From Aptenodytes patagonicus (Eukaryota; Chordata; Aves; Sphenisciformes; Spheniscidae), in contig NC_134962.1 in the NCBI RefSeq assembly GCF_965638725.1, forward strand, positions 2,487,501 through 2,551,500: a stretch of DNA of 64,000 bases, read 5' to 3'. The position numbers and the translations under genes are program-made. The notes beneath the pieces were generated by a model. The model was given only the letters and a program-made list of their open reading frames with translations. It had not been told where the DNA came from and did not search any database. This document shows, one piece after another, positions 1-64,000 of the stretch (position 1 is the first letter of the stretch; each line of letters begins with the position of its first letter).

Positions 1-118
1 TTTTTCTTTTTCTTTTCCTCCTTTTTTCTTTTCCTCCTTTTTTCTTTTTTTTTCTTTTTTCTTTGTCTTTTCCTTCTCCTTCTTTTCTTTCTTTTCCTTC
101 TTCCCCCGCCCCCTCCCC
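1..118 (+). repeat. Polypyrimidine (C/T)-rich simple repeat before a MYT1 exon
   Basis: The first ~118 bases are almost wholly T and C, mainly TTTTC and TTTTCC variants. They run directly into the splice acceptor of the acidic MYT1 exon, so the repeat also serves as a very long polypyrimidine tract. Confidence 0.85.
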
Positions 119-122
119 TCAG

Positions 123-27017
<26,895 letters not shown>

Positions 27018-37721: not shown

Positions 37722-40656
37722 CCTTTGCATGGGCAGGAGGATCTCAGGTGATTTGCCATCAGTGTGTTAATAGTAATACTAGTGTAAATGTGTAAGTCTG
37801 CATGTATTTATATATATGCATATGCGTGCATGTATGCATATATAGGACACGCTCCTGAAAGTGGTATAGTGCCAAACTGACCAGAAAACACAACAGAGCA
37901 TATTTTGCAAAATGAAAAAAAAAAGGAAATGGTGGAAATATAACCCTATGATTTAATGCTCCTCCAGCTCTTAATTTGTGTGAGTCATCCTGTCACCCAC
38001 AAATTACCCTGTTGACTTAAACAGCCATCTGTATTGCAAGGCTGCAGGTCAGGCTGCCTGAGCGCACCAGCTCTGCCTGCCAGGCCCTGACACGGGTGCT
38101 AAAATGAATGTTTACTATTTGCTCTTTCAAATAAATAAAAATATCCCATTTTAACTGACCATCACTAAGATGGACTTTGGAAGTTAATTCATGCTGACTG
38201 GTGTTTTAAAAATATTTGTAAAAGAAATTGGTTTAAAAAAAAGGAAGGAGGAAACTGTAAAACACAGGGAAGTAAAGACAAGGAAAAGCAAGAAAAATCT
38301 TGGCTTCAGCTCACCCCCAAGAAAATTACTTGCTCTCAGCAATTAAGCATCTCCGCTAACGAAGGATGGAGACCTGATTCTTACCGGTAAGACTGTAGAG
38401 CTGGGAGTTGCTGAGAGTAGGGACAGGGATTGCACTTGCGCCTGCGAGGGTCCCTGCCGTGCCCCAGCCCAGGGGAAGACGCTGAGGTGCAACCTCCAAA
38501 CCCTGCAGCAGTGCCTGTACTGCTGGAGACACCTTGTGGTACATGGCTGAGAAATATAATAATGCTGGGATATAATCAGTGCCACCAGGCCCTGCTTTCC
38601 CAATCCCACTTTGCTTTTTCCACTCTCAGAGACTGCTGGGGCTCTTCAAACGGGGGGGGGGAGCTGCCCACACGCATTTGTGGACAACGCAGACGCAGGA
38701 GTTACTTACTCATCTATTGCTGACTATAACTCATGGATAACAAAGACCCAGGTGAGCCGTAAGGAAGAAGGGAAGGCTTTTTAAAGTGCAGGGAAAGAAG
38801 TGGCACAAAGAATCGGCAACTGCAGACCCATGAAATCATGAAATCCCCAACCATTCTGTTTTTCTAAATGTGGGTATTTTTGCAATGTTATCAGACAACT
38901 TTGGGCTTCCTCCAGAGCTGGAGCCCGGTGCTGTCACCCACGTGGAGGTGTTTTCAGCAATAACTACATTTTCAAAGAACCCAGAGGAGAAAAAACTCCC
39001 AGGGGAGCAGAACCAGCGGGTGCCAGTGGAAAGCTGGGGGTGAGGTCATGCAGCAGCGAAAGCATGCCTGCCCAGGCACAGCTTGGCGTGACTCTTCCGT
39101 TAATCACCCCCCTTAGCGCATGATTTGGGCCACGTACTGCAGAGATGTGCGTGAGTTAGAGGTGCAGAAACTCACCTGTCACAGCTGAAGGGGTGACTGT
39201 CTCCCTTCAGCTAGTTCCTCCCCATGGCTCTGCCGCCTGACATGTTCGGGGTACAGGCAATGAGGTGGGGACTTGCAGTGGGCAAGTGTCTTCCCTGCGT
39301 GCTTCTCCTGGCTAATTCCTGTAATTCTCTGTTTGGAAACGGAGAGGCCGCAAATCTCACCAATCCTGGCAGTGAAAGGCTGGAAGAAATCATGAATACA
39401 CCTGGGAGGGCTCAGGGTATTTGGGAATCCCTTAAACACTCCTCAAGCTCTTTCGGGGACTTGCTGCAAGAGCAGCTGCTGCCGCCGAATCTTCCTCTCT
39501 GCCTTAGTAACAGTTTGCAGGGAGGCACAGTGATGCTCCCTTCTACTCCTGCTGCTGCGAGCTCTCTGCCTACAGCACAGCTGCTCTAGCAATAAAGGGA
39601 ATTTTTTTTTACCCAGCTTTTATTTTGACAATTTTTGCGCAAAAAATAAACAAACTGCTATTTTTCGAGCGGCTCGAGCAGGAAGGGGAGCAGATGCTGA
39701 ATGGAAGCCCTGGAATCACACGTGTAAGGAGTTTGTCTGTTCTGCGTTTGCAGATTTCAACTGCGTTGCCATTATGCTTGAGTGCTTTCTGTATTAAACA
39801 AGATGAGGCGAGCGCAATCACCACGTCCTGTTTTGGTTGAATCAGCAAGGAGGAGTTTCAGCGCTCACTCTCCACGAATAATCCCATTCTCCCAGGCAGC
39901 TGCCTTCTGCGAAATGAAAGTGCAGACATCTACAGTATTACCCCGTGCCTGTTTGCAGAGTCTGCTGTTATCATGTTAATGAAGGGAGCCGAGATAATCA
40001 CCTTAAAGCATAAATACATCTCAGATGCTGATTCACTTTCTCCTATTTGAATCTTGTTTACCAGAGTAATTCTTACTTTTTTCCGCTGCGGGCTTGTTGT
40101 GTCTGGAAGGGTAGCTATTTCTTTTTTTCACAATTCATCTCCAAAACACTTAAATCAAGAAGCCTCTTGTCTAGATCTGGTTATTCCTTCTCATTTCGTA
40201 GCCATACGTAGTATCGAGTCCTGGATCTAAGGCCAGTCCAGACAATTTTGTTTGATCTGCAGCCTTAGCGGTCACACAGATCGCGTAGCCTCAGCCAACG
40301 CTGTGTGGGTCACTTACGGATGAAGACAGACACGCACTTTTAGAGGATAATTTCTCTCACTCTGAGATGGGTGACAGGAACCACTTTTTCCCCATGTCTT
40401 GTCGGGCCCTGCCACGTCGGTTACAACCACTGAAGGAGCCTACGTGGGTGGGTAAAAGCTAAATTAGGTGCCTAACACTCAGCCAGATCACATCAGGGGA
40501 CAGGGATCCCTCCACTGCACGAATGGCAAGTCAGATATTGCGGCAGTCTCGCAATACTCCACGTTTTCTTCAAGCCCCAGCCCCTGGAGTCAGGTGAATA
40601 CGCATCTCACTTATTTTCTTCTCAGTTAATTTCTTTCTGGCGTTTACGGTTGCAGC

Positions 40657-40680
40657 AAAAAAAAAAAAAAAAAAAAAAAA
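40657..40680 (+). repeat. Poly-A run (24 A)
   Basis: Twenty-four A residues after GTTGCAGC. Could be the tail of an old retroposed insertion, but no target-site duplication was identified. Confidence 0.85.
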
Positions 40681-41200
40681 TCCAAGCATGTGACTCAAGT
40701 TGGGTGTTCACAGGCTCGAAATGCAGAATATCAATTAGCTCCCAGAGCAATGTTTTTATTCTAAGTTCCCGTGATTTTTTCCCAAGCCTGACTAACAATA
40801 TCAGAACATCTGGTGTTGTCCGCGCTTCACGCGGCAGGTTTAGCTACAGCACGAGGACTGCGTGTACCAGCTGGAGACTGGCATCTCCCCAGCTCCTTGC
40901 CGGCTCCCACCGCCGGGCTGCTCCGTGCATCTGCTTCCGCACCCTGGGAAGTCCCGATCCCACCCGGAGCCGGGGCAACGTGCTGTCACAGCGAGGTGTG
41001 CTGCAGGGGATGAGGACTGGGAGAACTGGGAGAACCGGGCGCTGAGCTGAAGGAGCAGGTGTGGAAATGCAGCCCTGTGCTGGGAGGCAGAAATTAGGGC
41101 AGGGTAGGGCGTACGGGGCCGGGGGAAGGCAGCCACACTGCGATGGGGAGGTGTTCCCAGGAGCTGTGCAACGGGACAGATGGGGAAAGATGGGAGTCCT

Positions 41201-41611
41201 AGTCTGCGTTTAGCCCTGGTCCATATTTAGGCTGGATCTCTGGGTGCAGGCTGTTGGCCCAGTCTCTATTTAGACCTGGTCTGCATTTAGACCTGGCCGA
41301 TATCCCTGCGCTGCTGGCCCAGGCCATATTTAAGCCTGGTCTGTCGGCCCCATCTGCATTTAGCTCCGATCTGTAGCTCTGGCCCACATTTAGGCCCTGC
41401 CTATGGGCCCAGCCTGTTGACCTAGGCTGTATTTAGACCCAGTTTGTACTTAGGCCCGGTCTGTATTTAGCTCCGGCCTGCAGGCCCAGTGTGTTGGCCC
41501 GGTTTGTATTAAGGCTTGGTCTGTAGGCCCCACATGCAGGCCCTATACATAGGCCCCACAAGTAGGTCCCGTGAGTCGATCCCACACGTAGGCCCAGCCC
41601 GCATTCAGGCC
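41201..41611 (+). repeat. Degenerate ~17-bp minisatellite upstream of the PCMTD2 promoter
   Basis: About 400 bp built from variants of GTCTGTATTTAGGCCTG. The core ATTTAG recurs about ten times and TTGGCCC or AGGCCC variants fill the gaps, for example GTCTCTATTTAGACCTG, GTCTGCATTTAGACCTG, GCTGTATTTAGACCCAG and GTCTGTATTTAGCTCCG. Towards the end the units shift to TAGGCCCCACA-type repeats. It directly abuts the CpG island. Confidence 0.85.
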
Positions 41612-42016
41612 GCTGTGCCGCCAGGGAAGGGCGAGCTCAGACAGCGACGGAGCCCGGAGCCCCCCGGCCGCCCCCGCACTGGGACGGGCCCGGCGCTGCC
41701 GCGTCTCCCCCTCAGGGAACCAGCGCCGCCCCCCTCCCCGCAGTGGTACAGTCTACCCCCCCGCGCCGGGTCTGCATGGTACAGCCCAGACAGCGCCCCC
41801 CCGCCGGACCGCAGTGGTCTGCTCCCCGCCACCCGACCGACCCCCCCCCCCCCCCCCGGCGGCGGTGGTGCGCGCCGCGCGTGCGCGGTGCCGCGGCCGG
41901 CGCTCAGCTGGGCAGTGTTTACCGCTCCGGAGCGCGGCGGGACGGCCGCGCCGCCGGGCCCGGGAGGGGAGCGGGCCGCACCGCACCGGGCCGAGCCGAC
42001 CCGCCCCGCCGCTCAG

Positions 42017-51943
<9,927 letters not shown>

Positions 51944-51977
51944 TTTCCTTCTTCTAAAAAGTGGGAAGTAGGCAGAA

Positions 51978-51983
51978 AATAAA
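51978..51983 (+). terminator. PCMTD2: Proximal poly(A) signal of PCMTD2
   Basis: AATAAA in AGAAAATAAAGTACC, 35 bases after the stop codon. Confidence 0.45.
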
Positions 51984-53539
51984 GTACCACTTAGGGCTTG
52001 ACAAATGTATACCACTTGCTTGCCTGCTAATATGACCACCCAAGGCAGTAGGCTAGCTGGGGAATGTGGCTGCTGTATACCTAAACATAATAGCTTTTTA
52101 AAGTTTTTTTTTTCTTCAGTTGTGTGCTATAGTTTTATCCTACAGCAGGGATTCCTTAGGAAGCAAGTTGGTGAAATGCTCAGCTGCTTATGGAAAGGAG
52201 GATTTAATTCCCTGAAACTAACTGCACAGAGATATTCTAAAAATCTCATGGCTGCTCTACTGAATTGCAGTTTTTAAATATTCTTAAGCAGTTCCCCAAA
52301 GACCTTTGCTGTCTGTGCTCTCTTCCGCTAAACCTGCCATGTGTTTACCGTGGTGTGTGTTTAATGGAGGATGAAGATTATTAGTAAAAACTGACCTGGC
52401 AAATCTTGTTTCTTCCAGTAATCTGAAAAAGCACAACTTTTACAGACATGAAAGGAAAGAATTTTTGGCATCCGGCCTTGTGGCATCCAGGTTTTGAATG
52501 AGAAGGAAAGCATCAGCTCCCCTTTGGTTGGTCTCAGTTTTGCTTATAAACTATATATAATTTTTCAGTAAAAGGTAAAAATGTTTTACGGAATATTGGT
52601 TTTCTTAACGGGAAACACCTGTTCTAGTGAATTAGTCTAATAGAGATGCAAAGTTGTGTGTTTTGTTTTGTTTTTTTTAAAGCGATGGAGGCAAGTGAAG
52701 AGTTGCAAAGCCGATTAGCTTTGACAGGATGCTAGGGTAGTCGGGGTTCTGACTGTTGCCTCTGTAAATGTTTACAGAGTAATTCTGAATGGGGAGGAGG
52801 GTAGAGAGGAAATGCGTAGCAGTGAGTTTGTGAAAACTGACTGGAAGCAGAATCTGTGGATTTTGCTGTTGTGTGAGGTAACTTACGTCTGCTGGGCTGA
52901 ACAGAGTGAAGTGCAGAGCGCGAGCCTGAGCGGAGTGGCTTGTGTCCCAGTAATTCAGCCAAATGTAGTTCTGTGGAGGGTATGTAGAACCTGAAAACAG
53001 TCTAGAAAGCCAAACTGATGCAGTTTTTAGGTGTTCCTGTGTGTGTGCCCCTGCTGTAGCAAGGTGGCTAGAATACTTGTGTGCACATGGTCCACATATG
53101 GTAGGTGAAATGAAGTTGGTTGACTTGGCAGGTTATTTTATGTCTGCAGCAATTAAGTAGATGTTTTAACAGGCTTGTATAGAAGGACTTTACACTCTGC
53201 AGTTCTGTGGATGTGAACTCTAATTTTTATTCCCAAGTCTTTCTGTAATGGTGATGGAAGGAGATACCATGTTTAGAAGGGGAAGTTTACTTGGTTCAGC
53301 CTGTTTTGAAAAATCTACCTAAACTGGTAAAGGCTGGAAAGAAACCCTTGAGCTTGTACTGATGTGAAATACTCCTAAAGCTGGGGGGATAAAAAGCTCC
53401 CTCTCAGTAGGTAATGAAGCTATGTTAAGGCATTGCCCCATCAGAAGCACTTAAGTTGGTATCACTTTGGTATTTTTTTTTTTTTTACGCTGTCTCCTCA
53501 TTTTCTGAGGAGGAATGGATGAAGACTGTCTTGCCAAAA

Positions 53540-53914
53540 ATAGCTGGGTTTTCGGAGAAGAGAAGGCTCCAGGGAGACCTTATAGCATCCTTCCAGTACC
53601 TGAAGGGTGCCTACAGGAAAGCTGGAGAGGGACGTTTTACAAGGGCATGTGGTGATAGGACAAGGGGTAATGGCTTTAAACTGAAAGCGGGTAGATTTAG
53701 ATTAGATATAAGGAAGAAATTCTTCACTATGAGGGTGGTGAGGCACTGGCACAGGTTGCCCAGAGAAGTTGTGGATGCCCCATCCCTGGAATTGTTCAAG
53801 GTCAGGTTGGATGGGTCTTTGAGCAACCTGGTCTAGTGGAAGGTGTCCCTGCCCATGGCAGGGGGGTTGGAACTAGGTGATTTTAAGGTCCCTTCCAACC
53901 CAAACCATTCTATG
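53540..53914 (+). mobile_element. CR1 LINE, 5'-truncated 3' end
   Basis: Typical avian CR1 tail. Landmarks are CAGTACCTGAAGGGTGCCTA, GGGCATGTGGTGATAGGAC, AGGAAGAAATTCTTCACTAT, GTGAGGCACTGGCACAGG, TTGTGGATGCCCCATCCCTG, GAGCAACCTGGTCTAGTGG, CCCTGCCCATGGCAGGGGGG and TCCCTTCCAACCCAAACC, ending in one ATTCTATG octamer. It encodes only the non-functional 3' end. It is modestly diverged and was inserted in the same direction as PCMTD2. Confidence 0.93.
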
Positions 53915-55300
53915 GTTAATGGTACTGAGTTGCACAACTTGCTTAATGATAAATAGAGTTTCAAAGTTGTGCGCAGCTTTGAAAATAAACGGATAACTCT
54001 TGTACGTCTAAGCCCGAGGTGGAGAATTCTTCCTTGCTTAATAGGCTTTTTGTATGTCTTTGAGATTATCTGGTAATGCGGTGTCATGTGGCTGCTGGCA
54101 CATAACACAGTCTTAGGCTGCATTTTGCCTCTGGTTTCCTAAGTCTCCACTTCTAGTCTAAACAGTACCCCAAGCTATCTTGCTCCCTCAGATTTTTATT
54201 TCTTTATTTTAAATGGGGCAGTTCTGTGGGCAGTGAGCTGATGGTTTCCTGTAAACATACAAGTATCCATCTTGTAATTCTGGCAACTACAATGAATTTC
54301 TCTCTACAAATGAAAATCCTGAATATGGTGGTGAATGGAGGCTTAATAGAATCTACGTGTAATATTTCTCTGTGCTTCCCCAAAGGCTGTCACCTCTGTA
54401 TTTGTTAGGCATTTCTGCTTAATAGCTCATACCAGGTATGTGCCTTTCTGTGTTGTGGCACAATTTCCGTACCCCTATGTAGTGCAGGGTGCCTCTTTGG
54501 CTACCAGGTTGTCCTTCAGTTTGTTAACTACAAAACTTCTTTTAAAGGAGTTGCTTTAAAAATGACATTAAACTTCAGGTTCGTATTAGTAAACCTTGCT
54601 GAGATTCTGTTACAGCTGATCAGTTGAGGGAGAATTATCTTTCATTTAGCCCTGTTTGATTTTACCCCCATCCCACCCCCAGTTGTAAAAGATATTTTGT
54701 CAGATTTTTCACCGGATTTGCCTTTTTTATTACATTTGCTAGATTTTTGTAGCTTTCTATAAGATGCATAAAATACTGCTATTTTTCCTGGATAAGGTTG
54801 AATAAATAAATATATATACAGGAAATTTATGTTCTAGGTTGTCAAATTGTCCCCTTGTCCAAAAAACCACAGATCCAAACACACCCATAGTAGAAATTTT
54901 ATGTGTAATATAATTGTGAAATAGTATTGCTTATAGCCTGTAAATGAAGGGGAACTGTAAATACGTTTTCCCTGTGCACAAGCACTTGCACTGTAGTTTT
55001 GTATGCATTTCTAATAGAGTAATTGTAGCATAACTGTTCTTGTATAGTCTGTAAGCTGTCTAGGAATTTTACCTGCTTTGATTGTTTCCTTTTGTGTTCG
55101 AAGTAGTCTTCGCTTTAATTGTACGTGACTCCGTTTAGGTTTCAATACTGCAGTAAATTTGCAAAAAGAAATTAACTTCAAGCTGCTTTAACCATTAGTG
55201 TGTAAGTTGAAAAATCTATGTGTAGAAACTAGAGTTAAATTGGCCTGAGGCATGCAAGTGTTACGCAATTTAAACTTTTATTAATAAGTGTTTCTGTATC

Positions 55301-58830: not shown

Positions 58831-58994
58831 ATGCTGATCAAATCTTCAGCTCTTCGAGGTTTTTTGTGTTTTCTCCTCTTGCCTAGTTTCTCCTGCTCCT
58901 GTCCTAGTCGCTGCCTGTGCTTCAGGACTACAGTAAGATGCATGCATCTGATGTTGGAAACCATCCCTGATATCCCACCCCAGACAAACATACT
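58831..58994 (+). CDS. Peroxidasin-like gene, first coding exon (signal peptide and LRRNT)
   Basis: The ATG at 58831 opens 54 codons plus two bases. Residues 1-22 are a signal peptide: [10 protein letters not shown], then a hydrophobic core [13 protein letters not shown]. Residues 24-54 are a leucine-rich-repeat N-terminal cap: [20 protein letters not shown], then [11 protein letters not shown]. Sixteen consecutive residues ([16 protein letters not shown]) match human PXDN as I recall it, and all four cap cysteines are kept. The donor CT|GTGAGT leaves phase 2, so the split codon reads Leu as in PXDN, where DLRFN follows. Peroxidasins are secreted haem peroxidases that make sulfilimine cross-links in collagen IV. 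The LRR, Ig and peroxidase exons would lie beyond the window, so it is unknown whether this gene is intact. Confidence 0.8.
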
Positions 58995-61900
58995 GTGAGT
59001 AACCATTTCATTTTACTGCCTTTCTTACCTGCTTGGTCTTTAGAAAGAAGAAAAAAAAAAAACTAAGGCCATAGGCATGCTTTTTATTCTCCTCCTTTTT
59101 TCCTGCAGAACTGTCTGCATCACAGACCGTTTCCTGCTTTTAAAGCATAAACCAGAAACTGCTTCTTTTGGCATCAGTTAATTGTTAACAGGACAACCAA
59201 GGGAATTGAAAAATTTACTAAGAATAATGTCAGGGCGATCACTGGAAGACAGTTTTGGAGAATCAAAGGTCACAAATGTTAAACTGAGCTTATAGAAAGG
59301 TACACAGTTTACATTTGAGAAGGCTTTGTATATGGGTGTAGGGGAGAGAGAGGAAATACAGCACTGCAGGCTTTTGTCTCTACTGAAACACTTTTCTAAT
59401 ACATACACCACCATTTCTTTCCTAAACTTTAAGTACTGCTTTTCCAGTTTCTGTCTGCACTATACAAACCAAAGTTAAGGCTTATTTGGAAAGCAACGAC
59501 TGTGGCAACTCACAGATTCCTTGCGCAGTACAAGTACCTGTTGGAGCTGCTGGCTGAGTCCATTCAAACAGAAAAGGTGGAGGAAAAGGACATGTAACGC
59601 TTGGGGATTCCTAAACAGCTTTTTCTGATAGATCCAGAAGAGCACTTCCCTGTGATTCTCAACTAATCCTAAACTTAAAGGTGGCTTTAAGGTGCAGCGG
59701 CATGTGACAAAATACTTCCCTTTGTGCTACTCTTAGCTGATCCCTTGGTTTGGAAGACTTTTTTTGTAAATGGTAGGAAAGACTTGTCAAAAATTTATCT
59801 TTATGCTCATCCTCCTTAAACTGCTGCCGATTGTAAAACTTTTTCAAGCCTAGTTTGAGAAGCCTTTCCCCGTGCCTGTAACAAACCAAATTTGATCTCA
59901 GCCAGAACATCTATGCTAGCATTTCTCCTGTAAACATCTCACTAATGTTGCTAATGCATTTTCTCTGCTGGCAGCCTAAGGAACGTGATGTGGGCAGGAT
60001 GCTGGCATTTTAATTGCTGCCATCCAGATCGGCTTTGGCGGATGGAAACCACGGAGGTTCTAGCATTAGTGGCACACAGGAAGATGTCTACACTGGCAAC
60101 AGCTGCCACAGCTGCGTTGTTGGGAAAACTGATTGCAGCTGGGCTACTTGGGAGTCATCCTGACACGGAGCAGGTCAGAATCTGGACTTGCTCTCTCTCT
60201 AGGCTAGGGATGGAGTGGTTATTCTACAGTGCAGAACTGGTCAGTACTGTATGGCTTGTTGCAAACTGTCTGGGTAGTGGTAATCTGCTCTACAGCAGCT
60301 TGCAGAGTCTGACTCTCCAAATTGTCACCAAACTTTTTTTTCCCCCTTATAGATTTGTCTGCATCTTGAAATTTTAAAATATTTAAAATACCCTTACACT
60401 ATTTGATTTTAGCAAAATGGTTTGTCTCTCTTTGTTTAAACATAGATTTTATTGGGGGAAAAGTTTGTTTTGGTGGCTAAACTGAGATATTTCTGAGCTC
60501 AGTAAAGCTTAATTTCTGTTCTCTTCCCAAAATGAGGCAGCATTTTCTGTCACACTGGATGGCCTGAGTGTGTTTCCTGTAGAGATTTTTTGAGCGCAGG
60601 GGGAAGGAAACTTACTGTGGTCACCAGCTTTTCTTCAGTACTGGAACAGTGGATTTCTAAATGCTCTCTGGCAATAGCGCACTTCATTCCTTCTGTGCTG
60701 CAGGGGGCAAAACGTAACTCTGGTCCGTGGCTTGTCCTTGCAGCTTTAGTAAAACTCCAGGTAGTATCTTGCTGTAATGTAGGTGGCATTGAGTTGTCTG
60801 TTAAACTCAACTCAGAAAGGTGACGAGGTTTTCCAGCGCAGTGTATGCAGTCACCCTAATTCCCTTTCCTCTGCTCTAACTAGTTTGCATGTACACTGTT
60901 TGTAAATGGTCCGTGTTTTGCCTACTTAACCATTTGGAAAGCTGGTTTATTTAGTTTAACGTGATAGCCACAGCCTTGAATGGGAAACTGGGTTTTTAAA
61001 CATTAACTAAATGGTATAGGTGTGTGATATAAAAGTAGTAATATTCCAAAATGAGATGACTGTCTTTATAGACCAGTATTTTTTAAGAAGATTTATCTGG
61101 TTTATTCTCTTTTAATACTGTCTGCGTAATTATAGGCAAAAAGTACTGATGAGCAGAGATCCCCATAGATATAGAGGCATATGAGCCTGGTAAGTGTTCT
61201 CTGTTGGCAGATCATGTGCCTTTGTATGGTGTGTGGCAAGTAAAAATCCTGACTTTCTGGCTATCTTGAAGATCTAATGTATGTAAATGCATTTGCCAGC
61301 CAGCTTCCCATTGTATCTTTTATAAATCGCATTTGAATAATTAAACTTTTTTTAATTGTGAAAGATCAAAGAATGCTTCTTAACCAAGCCCCTGACTACT
61401 CCAGCTTTTTGGCATGTAAATCTTTCTCCTGGGAGGACCGTTGTGTCAGAGTGAACATTCAGAATTATAGCAAGAATAGTCTTGATCATGGAGTTATTCT
61501 GAGTAGAAAATGTGGGATTGTGATATTTTCCACATTTGCCCTTTGGTATGAATAGGACCAAGGCTGTGACTGCAGATACAACACCGATCCCAGGCTCCAG
61601 CTCGGTTCCCTCGCAGAACAGCTGCAGTTTCCAGATGGAGTTTGCTTTGAAGTTGGGAGTTTGGGACTTTCTGACCTCAGTGACTCCGTGCCATCCTCCC
61701 TCTAACAATCCTTGAAGAGTGGGGAAGTCTTCTAGCCGGCACACGCTGTGCTTCAGCAAGCCCCGTTGGCAGATGGCCCCCTCGGGGCTGTAGCCAGCTG
61801 GCGTAACTTAGAATAGCCCATAGCCTTCTCCGAGCGATGCTGGGATTGGCATGGAACCAGTTCCAGGATTGATGAGCTGTTACTGGCTCCTCTTTGGTCG

Positions 61901-64000
61901 CCATTTCCCTCCTCCCTTCCCAGTCCCAGCTGGGTGCAGCTGAGGATCTGGCCCAATGTCTGGTTTTAGCAATAGACTATTTATCTCTGGTAATGAAGTC
62001 TGTTCGTTTTATCCTGAGCAGAGAATAGGATGGCAGGAATGGCTACATGTGTACGGATAAGTAAACTATAAAAATTCATGGTGTATAACTGCAAATGTAT
62101 TTTGGCTGCTGTCTGTTCAACTGGAACATGATTATCCAGATGTGATCTGCTGGTTACCGCTGGGATTCAAGCAGTTCTTTTTGCCAGCAGCCCAAAGAAG
62201 GGAACAGCTGTGAAACATACACTCAGAAAATTTCAATAGGTCTTTAGCCTTCTAAGTCATTTGTTCTACAGTGTGACATTTAAAATAATAAACTTTGAAA
62301 CGTGTGGGCATGAGTAGAAGAAATCCATGGAAAGAAGTTCCCCTCTGGCTGGCAGCTAATAGATTGCAATCCAATTATCCATGGGTTATTCTCCTTTCTG
62401 CATTATGCATAGCACATAATGAATGAGTACTTCTAGAGAAACATAGCTGAGGGCACAAGCAAAGGCAGCGCAGTATCTGGGATCTGAATGCATCGCTGGC
62501 ACGAACTGAAGGTGACCCAGTTGCTCACAGACCTGGTTGCTAATTGGGCAGTGTAAGCACGGCCAGCTTGACAAGTTTTGTTTCCCTTCATCGTTGTGCT
62601 GCTTGTTTGGTGGCCGCTCGGTTCCTTTCTTCCTCCCGCAGGTCACTGCACTGCAGTAGGGAAGGCTGTAGCAGGACAGGGTGTAGCTCTCCTAGTCCAT
62701 CTTAAGGAGCATAGTTTTGAGAAGGAACTTTATACATTTGTTGGGGAAAGGTTTACTGAGCAAATGAGTTCTTGGAAATGCTGCTCCCTTTGTGGTCTCT
62801 GTCGTGCGCTTTGGGTTAAAGAAGGGATTACTCATTTCCTCTGTGTGTGATAGTCTTATATGCAACCATTAAACACACACCCACGCATTCTGGATGTGCC
62901 AGGTGTGATCTCTTTCTGACTTCTTTCGCTATAGTATTTAATGCTCATTAAACCTTTTAGAGGTGACCAAAGTCTTCTGTATGTTCTGTTTATAGAGTTC
63001 CCTTCATCGGAAGGAAAATGGGGAGGGAAGGTATTTAAAGCATATTTTCCTTCTAGAAGCATTCCAGCATCTTTTGATGAAAGCATCCTAACTCTTGCGA
63101 TTGTAGCTACCTTAAGTGTTTAGAAATCCTGCCTTCGCTGAACTTCACAGTGCTTCATCATGTGGTTCCCACTTGAGTATTTGCATTTTCATTGACCTCA
63201 CCACATCCTTCTCCCCATAGGGATCCCCACAGGATTTTTTTCCTGCTCTTTAAGGAGAAGTCAGTATTTTTTGGTGAAAGAACGTGTGTGTATTCTGGGT
63301 AAAGATTTAAATGGCCATGCTCCTAAAAAAGAAAAAAGCTGACACCTATGCTACATGAGACTCCATATTAAAGAATGCCCCAGCAGTTCATTTAAGCTGG
63401 CACGGTGCTACTGCTTCTCGGACTCCGTGGAAAAGGTAAATAGGTAAATATATCTTACGCTCGGCAATTTTCTTTTACTCCCTCCAGATCAGGATCAGAA
63501 CACACTTCAGGAGGAGGAAAAGTTGTCTTCATTTGATGTGGGCGATATCTTGAATAGATGGTGCAAAGGAAATACACGTTAGGTTAAGAGAGTCCTGCTC
63601 CTTGCTGACATGAATGCCCAAGAACAGACTTAGCTGGTTTGATTAGGATCAGACCCTAATCTCCATACCAGCTGTTAATATATAATAGCTCAAATTATCT
63701 AAGGTTGATGAGGTCAACAGTTTGCTGTGTAAACTCCCTACTTGAATATGTGTCCAGGGCCAAAACTATATTTTGGAGATATTCCTTGCTCCTGCCTTTA
63801 CGGGCAAGAGCTAAAGGGATGCTCTGTGGCAGTTGATGAAACGATTCCACCAGGGATGAAGCACCAGCAGACCCCTCCTGCCCTGGCACTGCCTTTAGGG
63901 CCAGGCTCTGAAGTGCAACATTGACGCCAGCTTACGTGCACAGAAAAGGTGGGATCAAAACAGCTTGGTACGTTGACTGCTGAATTACTATCTTGCCCCA
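58995..64000 (+). other. Presumed first intron of the peroxidasin-like gene
   Basis: No LRR-encoding exon (DLRFN-type start) was found to the window end, which fits the long first introns of peroxidasins. Open stretches at 59448-59597 and 63488-63585 follow acceptor-like sequences but do not continue the peroxidasin frame. A possible old repeat covers about 61560-61960. Confidence 0.5.

What the first reader, a model, noticed from the sequence alone, without database searches (positions are those of the whole stretch)
58831..58994. First exon of a third peroxidasin-family gene beside MYT1-PCMTD2
Seen: the exon encodes a signal peptide and an LRRNT cap with [16 protein letters not shown], ends at a phase-2 GTGAGT donor inside a Leu codon, and has an in-frame stop upstream. 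Known: this cap motif is diagnostic of PXDN/PXDNL, and in human PXDN lies beside MYT1L (2p25) and PXDNL beside PCMTD1 and ST18 (8q11). Inference: this is a separate paralog on the MYT1 chromosome, absent beside human MYT1-PCMTD2 as I know that locus. It may be auto-annotated in bird genomes as peroxidasin-like without study. If intact, birds have an extra collagen IV cross-linking or related secreted peroxidase.
Basis: partly seen in the sequence, partly recalled or inferred. Interest (0 to 1): 0.9.

Follow-up and report, generated by a model that had tools for sequence, protein, structure and literature searches.

The report
Third peroxidasin gene beside bird MYT1-PCMTD2
This bird genome carries a complete, apparently active third kind of peroxidasin, a secreted enzyme of the family that cross-links collagen, sitting beside MYT1 and PCMTD2, while the copy equivalent to human PXDNL seems to survive only as a broken fragment.

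Summary
The exon is real and is exon 1 of a complete gene. In the window's own genome (1.35 Gb) the gene runs from window 58831 to 102073 (C14:2546331-2589573): 22 coding exons, 1406 codons, no internal stop. It encodes a leader, LRRs, four Ig domains, an animal heme peroxidase and a coiled coil; the terminal VWC domain is lost. Three peroxidasin loci were found, each downstream of a MYT gene on the same strand: MYT1-PCMTD2-this gene, MYT1L-PXDN, and ST18-PCMTD1-a decayed fragment. A recent copy of bird PXDN is rejected. I read it as a third, old paralog (ohnolog) of the MYT paralogon, with the true PXDNL decayed. It keeps the catalytic residues that human PXDNL lost, plus a furin-type RSKR site, so an active secreted peroxidase is likely; collagen IV cross-linking is inferred. 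A chicken QTL paper lists 'PXDNL' beside PCMTD2 on chromosome 20, so the gene is probably annotated in birds under the wrong paralog's name. No paper I saw describes a third vertebrate peroxidasin locus. Untested: other vertebrates, expression, activity.

The parts
58831..58994 (+). Coding exon 1 of the third peroxidasin: start codon, signal-peptide-like leader, LRRNT cap; phase-2 donor GTGAGT at 58995
58995..64000 (+). Start of intron 1, which runs past the window end; exon 2 lies at C14:2556799-2556870. The remaining 21 coding exons are outside the window, the last ending at C14:2589573
45230..51940 (+). PCMTD2 coding exons, the adjacent upstream gene. The last exon is 88% identical to human PCMTD2 and 44% to PCMTD1 (human sequences recalled)
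   Evidence: genome-wide copies
107..27014 (+). MYT1 coding exons with C2HC zinc fingers and C-terminal coiled coil; the gene starts before the window (finger at C14:2485673)

Best explanation
The exon opens a complete third peroxidasin gene of the MYT paralogon. One ancestral MYT-PCMTD-PXDN block was multiplied early in vertebrate history. The copies are MYT1L-PXDN, ST18-PCMTD1-PXDNL and MYT1-PCMTD2-this gene. In this bird the PXDNL copy has decayed, and the MYT1-side copy is intact. Shown: gene structure, synteny within this genome, divergence older than the bird-mammal split, conserved residues. Likely mechanism (inferred): the protein enters the secretory pathway, binds heme covalently through Asp and Glu, forms disulfide-linked trimers, is cut by a furin-type protease at RSKR, and in the matrix uses H2O2 to oxidise bromide to HOBr, as PXDN does for collagen IV sulfilimine bonds. 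It lacks the VWC domain, which PXDN sheds on activation, so its propeptide is only the coiled-coil tail.
For: Gene: 22 coding exons, 1406 codons, no internal stop; 21 of 21 introns GT-AG (the script required AG and allowed GT or GC for 19 junctions; 2 placed by eye). Domains: An_peroxidase 669.7 bits, four Ig I-set stretches, LRRs. Loci: three peroxidasin loci found (39 of 39 candidates scored, 33 of 525 scored). Synteny: MYT1, PCMTD2, gene on C14; MYT1L, PXDN on C3; ST18, PCMTD1, relic on C2, all on the + strand. Age: quartet test, delta lnL 64; synonymous sites against bird PXDN saturated, pS 0.92, dN 0.14 over 498 codons. Residues: 9 of 9 checked positions of human PXDN match (Cys736, Gln823, Asp826, His827, Arg977, Glu980, His1074, Cys1315, Arg1336), plus the proximal Asn motif; human PXDNL has Trp, Glu and Ile at Gln823, Asp826 and Asn (roles in PMC8533639, PMC3533774). 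Loss of the VWC raises human PXDN activity (PMC5377774). Chicken chr 20 lists PXDNL with PCMTD2 (PMC7240924).
Against: No RNA evidence for this gene in this species. The rooted tree does not settle its sister: with PXDN bpRELL 0.714, with PXDNL 0.257, outside both 0.028, so a 2R date rests on synteny. The VWC domain, typical of the family, is absent. Four donors are weak (GTACTG twice, GTATTA, GTGTAG). PMC3533774 splits vertebrate peroxidasins into only two branches, with birds in each, which this reading contradicts. The relic covers part of one exon only, so its being PXDNL rests on position; its place in the tree is weak.
Confidence: 0.85

Rival explanations
1. It is the bird orthologue of mammalian PXDNL, as bird annotation names it, moved next to MYT1-PCMTD2 by rearrangement.
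For: Rooted peroxidase tree with C14 sister to human PXDNL is only 2.3 lnL worse (pSH 0.528). Chicken annotation uses the name PXDNL for a gene listed with PCMTD2. Exon 1 shares PXDNL-like letters, HLML and IP, but bird PXDN also has HLML.
Against: A peroxidasin relic sits at the expected PXDNL place, about 213 kb downstream of PCMTD1 on the same strand. PCMTD2 and MYT1 beside the gene are the true paralogs, not PCMTD1/ST18. Catalytic residues lost in human PXDNL are kept. Overall identity is higher to PXDN (69.7%) than to PXDNL (61.3%).
Confidence: 0.1
2. It is a later duplicate of PXDN (segmental, sauropsid or bird lineage) that landed beside PCMTD2.
For: Closest to PXDN by identity (79-80% in the peroxidase domain).
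Against: Bird PXDN is 90.3% identical to human PXDN in that domain while this gene is 79.1%; pairing it with bird PXDN is rejected. Introns are present, so not a retrocopy. Position and strand repeat the MYT-PCMTD-PXDN order of the other loci.
Confidence: 0.03
3. The gene is intact in sequence but works mainly as a matrix adhesion or scaffold protein rather than as a collagen IV cross-linking peroxidase.
For: Loss of the VWC domain and faster change in Ig domains (64.0% to human PXDN against 79.1% in the peroxidase domain) could mean altered partners; PXDN itself already covers cross-linking.
Against: The peroxidase domain is its best conserved part, with a tip branch of 0.099 against 0.145 for bird PXDN from the shared node and 0.337 for human PXDNL; catalytic, trimer-cysteine and furin-site residues are kept.
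Confidence: 0.25

Closest known systems
PXDN (peroxidasin 1), human and the C3 copy of this bird
   Same: Domain order leader-LRR-Ig x4-peroxidase-coiled coil; 9 of 9 checked functional residues of human PXDN; 69.7% identity overall to human, 79.1% in the peroxidase domain
   Different: Different locus (MYT1-PCMTD2, not MYT1L-TPO); no VWC domain; RSKR in place of RGRR at the furin site; outside the bird + human PXDN pair in the tree
PXDNL (peroxidasin-like), human 8q11
   Same: Same architecture apart from the VWC, and a parallel place downstream of a MYT-PCMTD pair; 61.3% identity
   Different: Keeps Gln, Asp and Asn of the active site, which human PXDNL has replaced; lies in the MYT1, not the ST18, paralogon
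Chicken gene annotated PXDNL, chromosome 20, 9.06-9.10 Mb (PMC7240924, table passage seen)
   Same: Listed in one region with PCMTD2, so very probably the same gene
   Different: Carries the name of a different paralog; no chicken sequence was compared here
MgaPxd03, third turkey peroxidasin in the sequence table of PMC3533774
   Same: A bird with three listed peroxidasins
   Different: Locus and sequence not given in the passages seen; the paper recognises only Pxd1 and Pxd2 branches

Membership tests
Peroxidasin family (multidomain) | LRR + four Ig + animal heme peroxidase in one secreted protein | tested here: met
   (An_peroxidase 669.7 bits, four I-set stretches, LRR_8); leader, by eye; LRRNT 17 bits and LRRCT 17.7 bits lie under their cut-offs
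Peroxidasin family (multidomain) | C-terminal VWC module (typical; removed from PXDN on maturation, so not treated here as exclusive) | tested here: not met
   Last exon ends in a stop just before the VWC. In about 12 kb downstream only weak VWC-part matches, best E 0.033. Genome-wide VWC search: no hit near the gene; the C3 PXDN locus gave one hit below cut-off, 22.6 bits, E 0.19
Peroxidasin family (multidomain) | Active-site set (distal Gln, Asp-His-Asp, Arg, heme-ester Glu, proximal His and Asn) | tested here: met
   roles from PMC3533774 and PMC8533639
Peroxidasin family (multidomain) | Peroxidase activity / sulfilimine cross-linking of collagen IV | not testable with these tools
   needs protein expression
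PXDNL orthologue | Locus beside ST18-PCMTD1 | tested here: not met
   that locus carries the C2 relic
PXDNL orthologue | Trp and Glu at the positions of PXDN Gln823 and Asp826 | tested here: not met
   (a human PXDNL feature; may not hold for all orthologues)
PXDNL orthologue | Groups with PXDNL in a rooted tree | tested here: inconclusive
   bpRELL 0.257 against 0.714 for grouping with PXDN
PXDN (recent copy) | Groups with bird PXDN inside the PXDN clade | tested here: not met
   pSH 0.008 rooted, 0.000 quartet
Ohnolog of the MYT paralogon | Same gene order and strand as sister blocks | tested here: met
   three of three blocks MYT -> (PCMTD, not found on C3) -> peroxidasin on + strand
Ohnolog of the MYT paralogon | Origin at the base of vertebrates (2R) | tested here: inconclusive
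   older than the bird-mammal split; no fish, shark or frog genome available

The most novel reading that the evidence does not exclude
Vertebrates had three functional peroxidasins; mammals and birds then lost different ones. Birds keep a second catalytically active collagen IV cross-linking enzyme that is genetically pre-trimmed (no VWC brake), while mammals keep an inactive PXDNL. The bird gene called PXDNL is a hidden paralog, so bird and mammal PXDNL data are not comparable.
Probability: 0.5. Interest if true: 0.7.

Novelty: new member of a known kind. Interest (0 to 1): 0.55.

Why it matters
A paper on the mammalian enzymes counts two peroxidasins: PXDN, which cross-links collagen IV, and PXDNL, which has no measurable peroxidase activity (PMC8533639, passages seen). 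An intact, old third copy with a full active site means that a bird may have two enzymes able to brominate matrix proteins or cross-link collagen IV. It also means that the name PXDNL in birds probably points to the wrong paralog, which would mislead orthology-based selection scans and expression comparisons. Loss of the VWC module gives a natural experiment on what that domain does.

Tried and rejected
Considered and rejected: (a) that the neighbours were really PCMTD1/ST18, making this plain PXDNL (rejected); (b) orphan exon or pseudogene (rejected); (c) retrocopy or recent copy of PXDN (rejected). PDB search with exon 1 gave 34 distinct sequences at E up to 10, mostly LRR-cap proteins such as lamprey VLRs, decorin, biglycan and Slit; none is named peroxidasin. 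PDB search with the peroxidase exon gave 35 (MPO, LPO, EPO, DUOX1, peroxinectin, alpha-oxidases/dioxygenases), none named peroxidasin. A first tree used outgroup exons read on the wrong strand and was discarded; it was redone with the strand corrected. Topology tests by IQ-TREE gave no table, so RELL and SH values were computed from site likelihoods. dN/dS could not be given because synonymous sites are saturated. The relic's place in the tree stays weak: the best of six topologies pairs it with human PXDNL, bpRELL 0.390, and the other five are not rejected. Other peroxidase hits on C10, C5 and C18 lie in short exons, unlike the 1.5-kb peroxidasin exon, and were not examined further. No structure was predicted.

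In the titles and abstract starts listed, none names a third vertebrate peroxidasin locus. PMC3533774 does mention a third human entry, which it takes for a splice variant, and lists three turkey entries. Subscription journals are mostly not in this library. Papers were seen as passages (PMC3533774 also one full section; PMC2315650, PMC8533639, PMC11601313, PMC10657184, PMC5377774, PMC7240924, PMC8464878, PMC5082542 passages only).

Full report
Observation. The exon at 58831-58994 is as described: upstream in-frame stop, start codon, hydrophobic leader, LRRNT cap [16 protein letters not shown] and a phase-2 GTGAGT donor. In a six-frame search of the whole assembly that holds the window (1,352,360,349 bases, 618 contigs; window = C14:2487501-2551500), the exon matches two places at E 0.001 or better: itself and C3:22157284.

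The gene downstream. The Pfam animal peroxidase model, run over the whole assembly, found its best match at C14:2585015-2586403, about 38.5 kb past exon 1, on the same strand, in an open frame of 549 codons. I fetched the next 50 kb. tblastn with recalled human PXDN and PXDNL found the LRR, LRRCT, Ig and peroxidase exons in order on one strand. Joining them by reading frame, splice sites and similarity gave 22 coding exons and 1406 codons with no internal stop. In the 19 junctions chosen by script, acceptors had to be AG and donors GT or GC; every chosen donor was GT. The last two junctions were placed by eye and are also GT-AG. Four donors are weak. Pfam finds An_peroxidase (669.7 bits), four Ig I-set stretches and LRRs, and no VWC at E 0.01.

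The C-terminus. The last exon ends GDKWRKR-stop, where human PXDN continues into the VWC domain. The frame next to it still reads a degenerate KDDHAACSYK, with two of the three cysteines of this stretch gone (comparison with recalled human KKDACTICECK). In the roughly 12 kb that follow, tblastn at a loose cut-off gave only weak matches to parts of the VWC, the best E 0.033 at window-frame 106926-106988, with a different cysteine spacing; I take them as chance. The genome-wide VWC search gave no hit near the gene, while the PXDN locus on C3 gave one hit below cut-off, 22.6 bits, E 0.19, at C3:22242444, so this control is itself faint. In human PXDN a convertase cleaves at Arg1336, removing the VWC and raising activity (PMC5377774 and PMC10657184, passages seen). 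This gene has RSKR at that place.

Neighbours and paralogons. The window holds MYT1 (exons from 107 to 27014) and PCMTD2 (45230-51940). The last PCMTD exon is 88% identical to recalled human PCMTD2 and 44% to PCMTD1. Zinc-finger exons of the MYT family lie at C14:2485673-2510944, C3:22008991-22113774 and C2:45330009-45369425, all on the + strand; four single hits elsewhere (C14:17575525, C21:5328446, C20:3103520, C3:64179568) were set aside. A search with the first PCMTD2 exon found two copies, on C14 and at C2:45465492, none on C3. Peroxidasin-type loci found are three: C14 (this gene), C3 (PXDN, with exons of TPO on the other strand beyond it) and C2:45678257-45678961. One search scored 39 of 39 candidates, only 33 of 525. 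The C3 gene is PXDN: 89.0% identical to recalled human PXDN over about 510 residues. The names MYT1L, ST18 and TPO come from position and recalled human synteny. So all three blocks read MYT, then PCMTD (not found on C3), then peroxidasin, on one strand.

The C2 relic. It covers only human PXDN residues 855-1086, within one exon, with three in-frame stops, two shifts of reading frame and changed residues. Nothing else of the gene was seen in the 9.8 kb upstream and 1.4 kb downstream that I held. It lies about 213 kb downstream of the PCMTD1 exon on the same strand. I read it as the decayed orthologue of mammalian PXDNL, chiefly by position. The tree agrees only weakly: best with human PXDNL, bpRELL 0.390 among six topologies, none rejected; plain identity is slightly higher to this gene (136 of 221) than to human PXDNL (123 of 219) (the alignment with faulty outgroups).

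Age and sister group. Over 968 ungapped columns, the split (bird PXDN, human PXDN | this gene, human PXDNL) beats both alternatives by 64 lnL. In the peroxidase tree rooted with this bird's own TPO and two C17 peroxidases (438 columns), pairing with bird PXDN is rejected (pSH 0.008), while the order of the three old lines is not resolved: sister to PXDN 0.714, to PXDNL 0.257, outermost 0.028. Synonymous sites against bird PXDN are saturated (pS 0.92). The duplication therefore precedes the bird-mammal split; a 2R date follows from the three-fold block and is an inference.

Function. Nine positions were compared with human PXDN: Cys736, Gln823, Asp826, His827, Arg977, Glu980, His1074, Cys1315 and Arg1336. 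Nine of nine are identical in this gene, while human PXDNL differs at Gln823 (Trp) and Asp826 (Glu). The proximal Asn motif is AAINIQRGRDHG as in PXDN, against AATIIQRGRDHG in PXDNL. PMC8533639 links the Trp and Glu changes to the lack of activity, and PMC3533774 says that its Pxd2 group lacks the Gln and Asp and varies at the Asn. The peroxidase domain is 79.1% identical to human PXDN, and its branch is shorter than that of bird PXDN from the shared node (0.099 against 0.088 + 0.057), a sign of constraint. Ig domains are 64.0% and LRRs 71.9% identical. The likeliest reading is an active, secreted, furin-processed peroxidase of the matrix. That it cross-links collagen IV is inferred from PXDN and not shown.

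What is known. PMC3533774 (2012) lists two chicken, two zebra finch and three turkey peroxidasins, but describes only two vertebrate branches, each containing birds, and takes a third human entry for a splice variant. PMC7240924 lists a chicken region on chromosome 20, 9.06-9.10 Mb, with genes PXDNL and PCMTD2, so the bird gene called PXDNL is very probably this one. PMC8464878 lists PXDNL among genes changed in chicken breast muscle, a hint of expression if the same gene is meant. PMC11601313 shows a misalignment at the 3' end of a PXDNL alignment from Shultz and Sackton 2019; that this is a bird set is recalled, and a changed 3' end would fit the VWC loss.

Verdict. The gene is a new member of the peroxidasin family by locus, intact here, while the true PXDNL seems decayed. 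Its novelty lies in its identity as a hidden third paralog with an active-type site and no VWC, not in a new kind of protein.

Noticed in passing
L006 / L042 (C2:45678257-45678961): Broken peroxidasin fragment with three in-frame stops about 213 kb downstream of PCMTD1: probable decayed PXDNL of this bird.
   Followed up: yes
C17:782751-789193 (+) and C17:806158-818510 (-): Two sets of heme-peroxidase exons of the MPO/LPO/EPO kind (recalled kinship) pointing towards each other about 17 kb apart; used only as outgroups.
   Followed up: partly
window 40001-42500: G+C peak of 0.578 with several long overlapping frames about 3 kb upstream of the PCMTD2 start codon, probably its CpG-island promoter rather than a gene.
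   Followed up: no
window 44000-54000: Marked G over C excess on the + strand (skew up to 0.219) across the transcribed PCMTD2 region.
   Followed up: no
window 521-622: Long glutamate run in the MYT1 acidic region.
   Followed up: no
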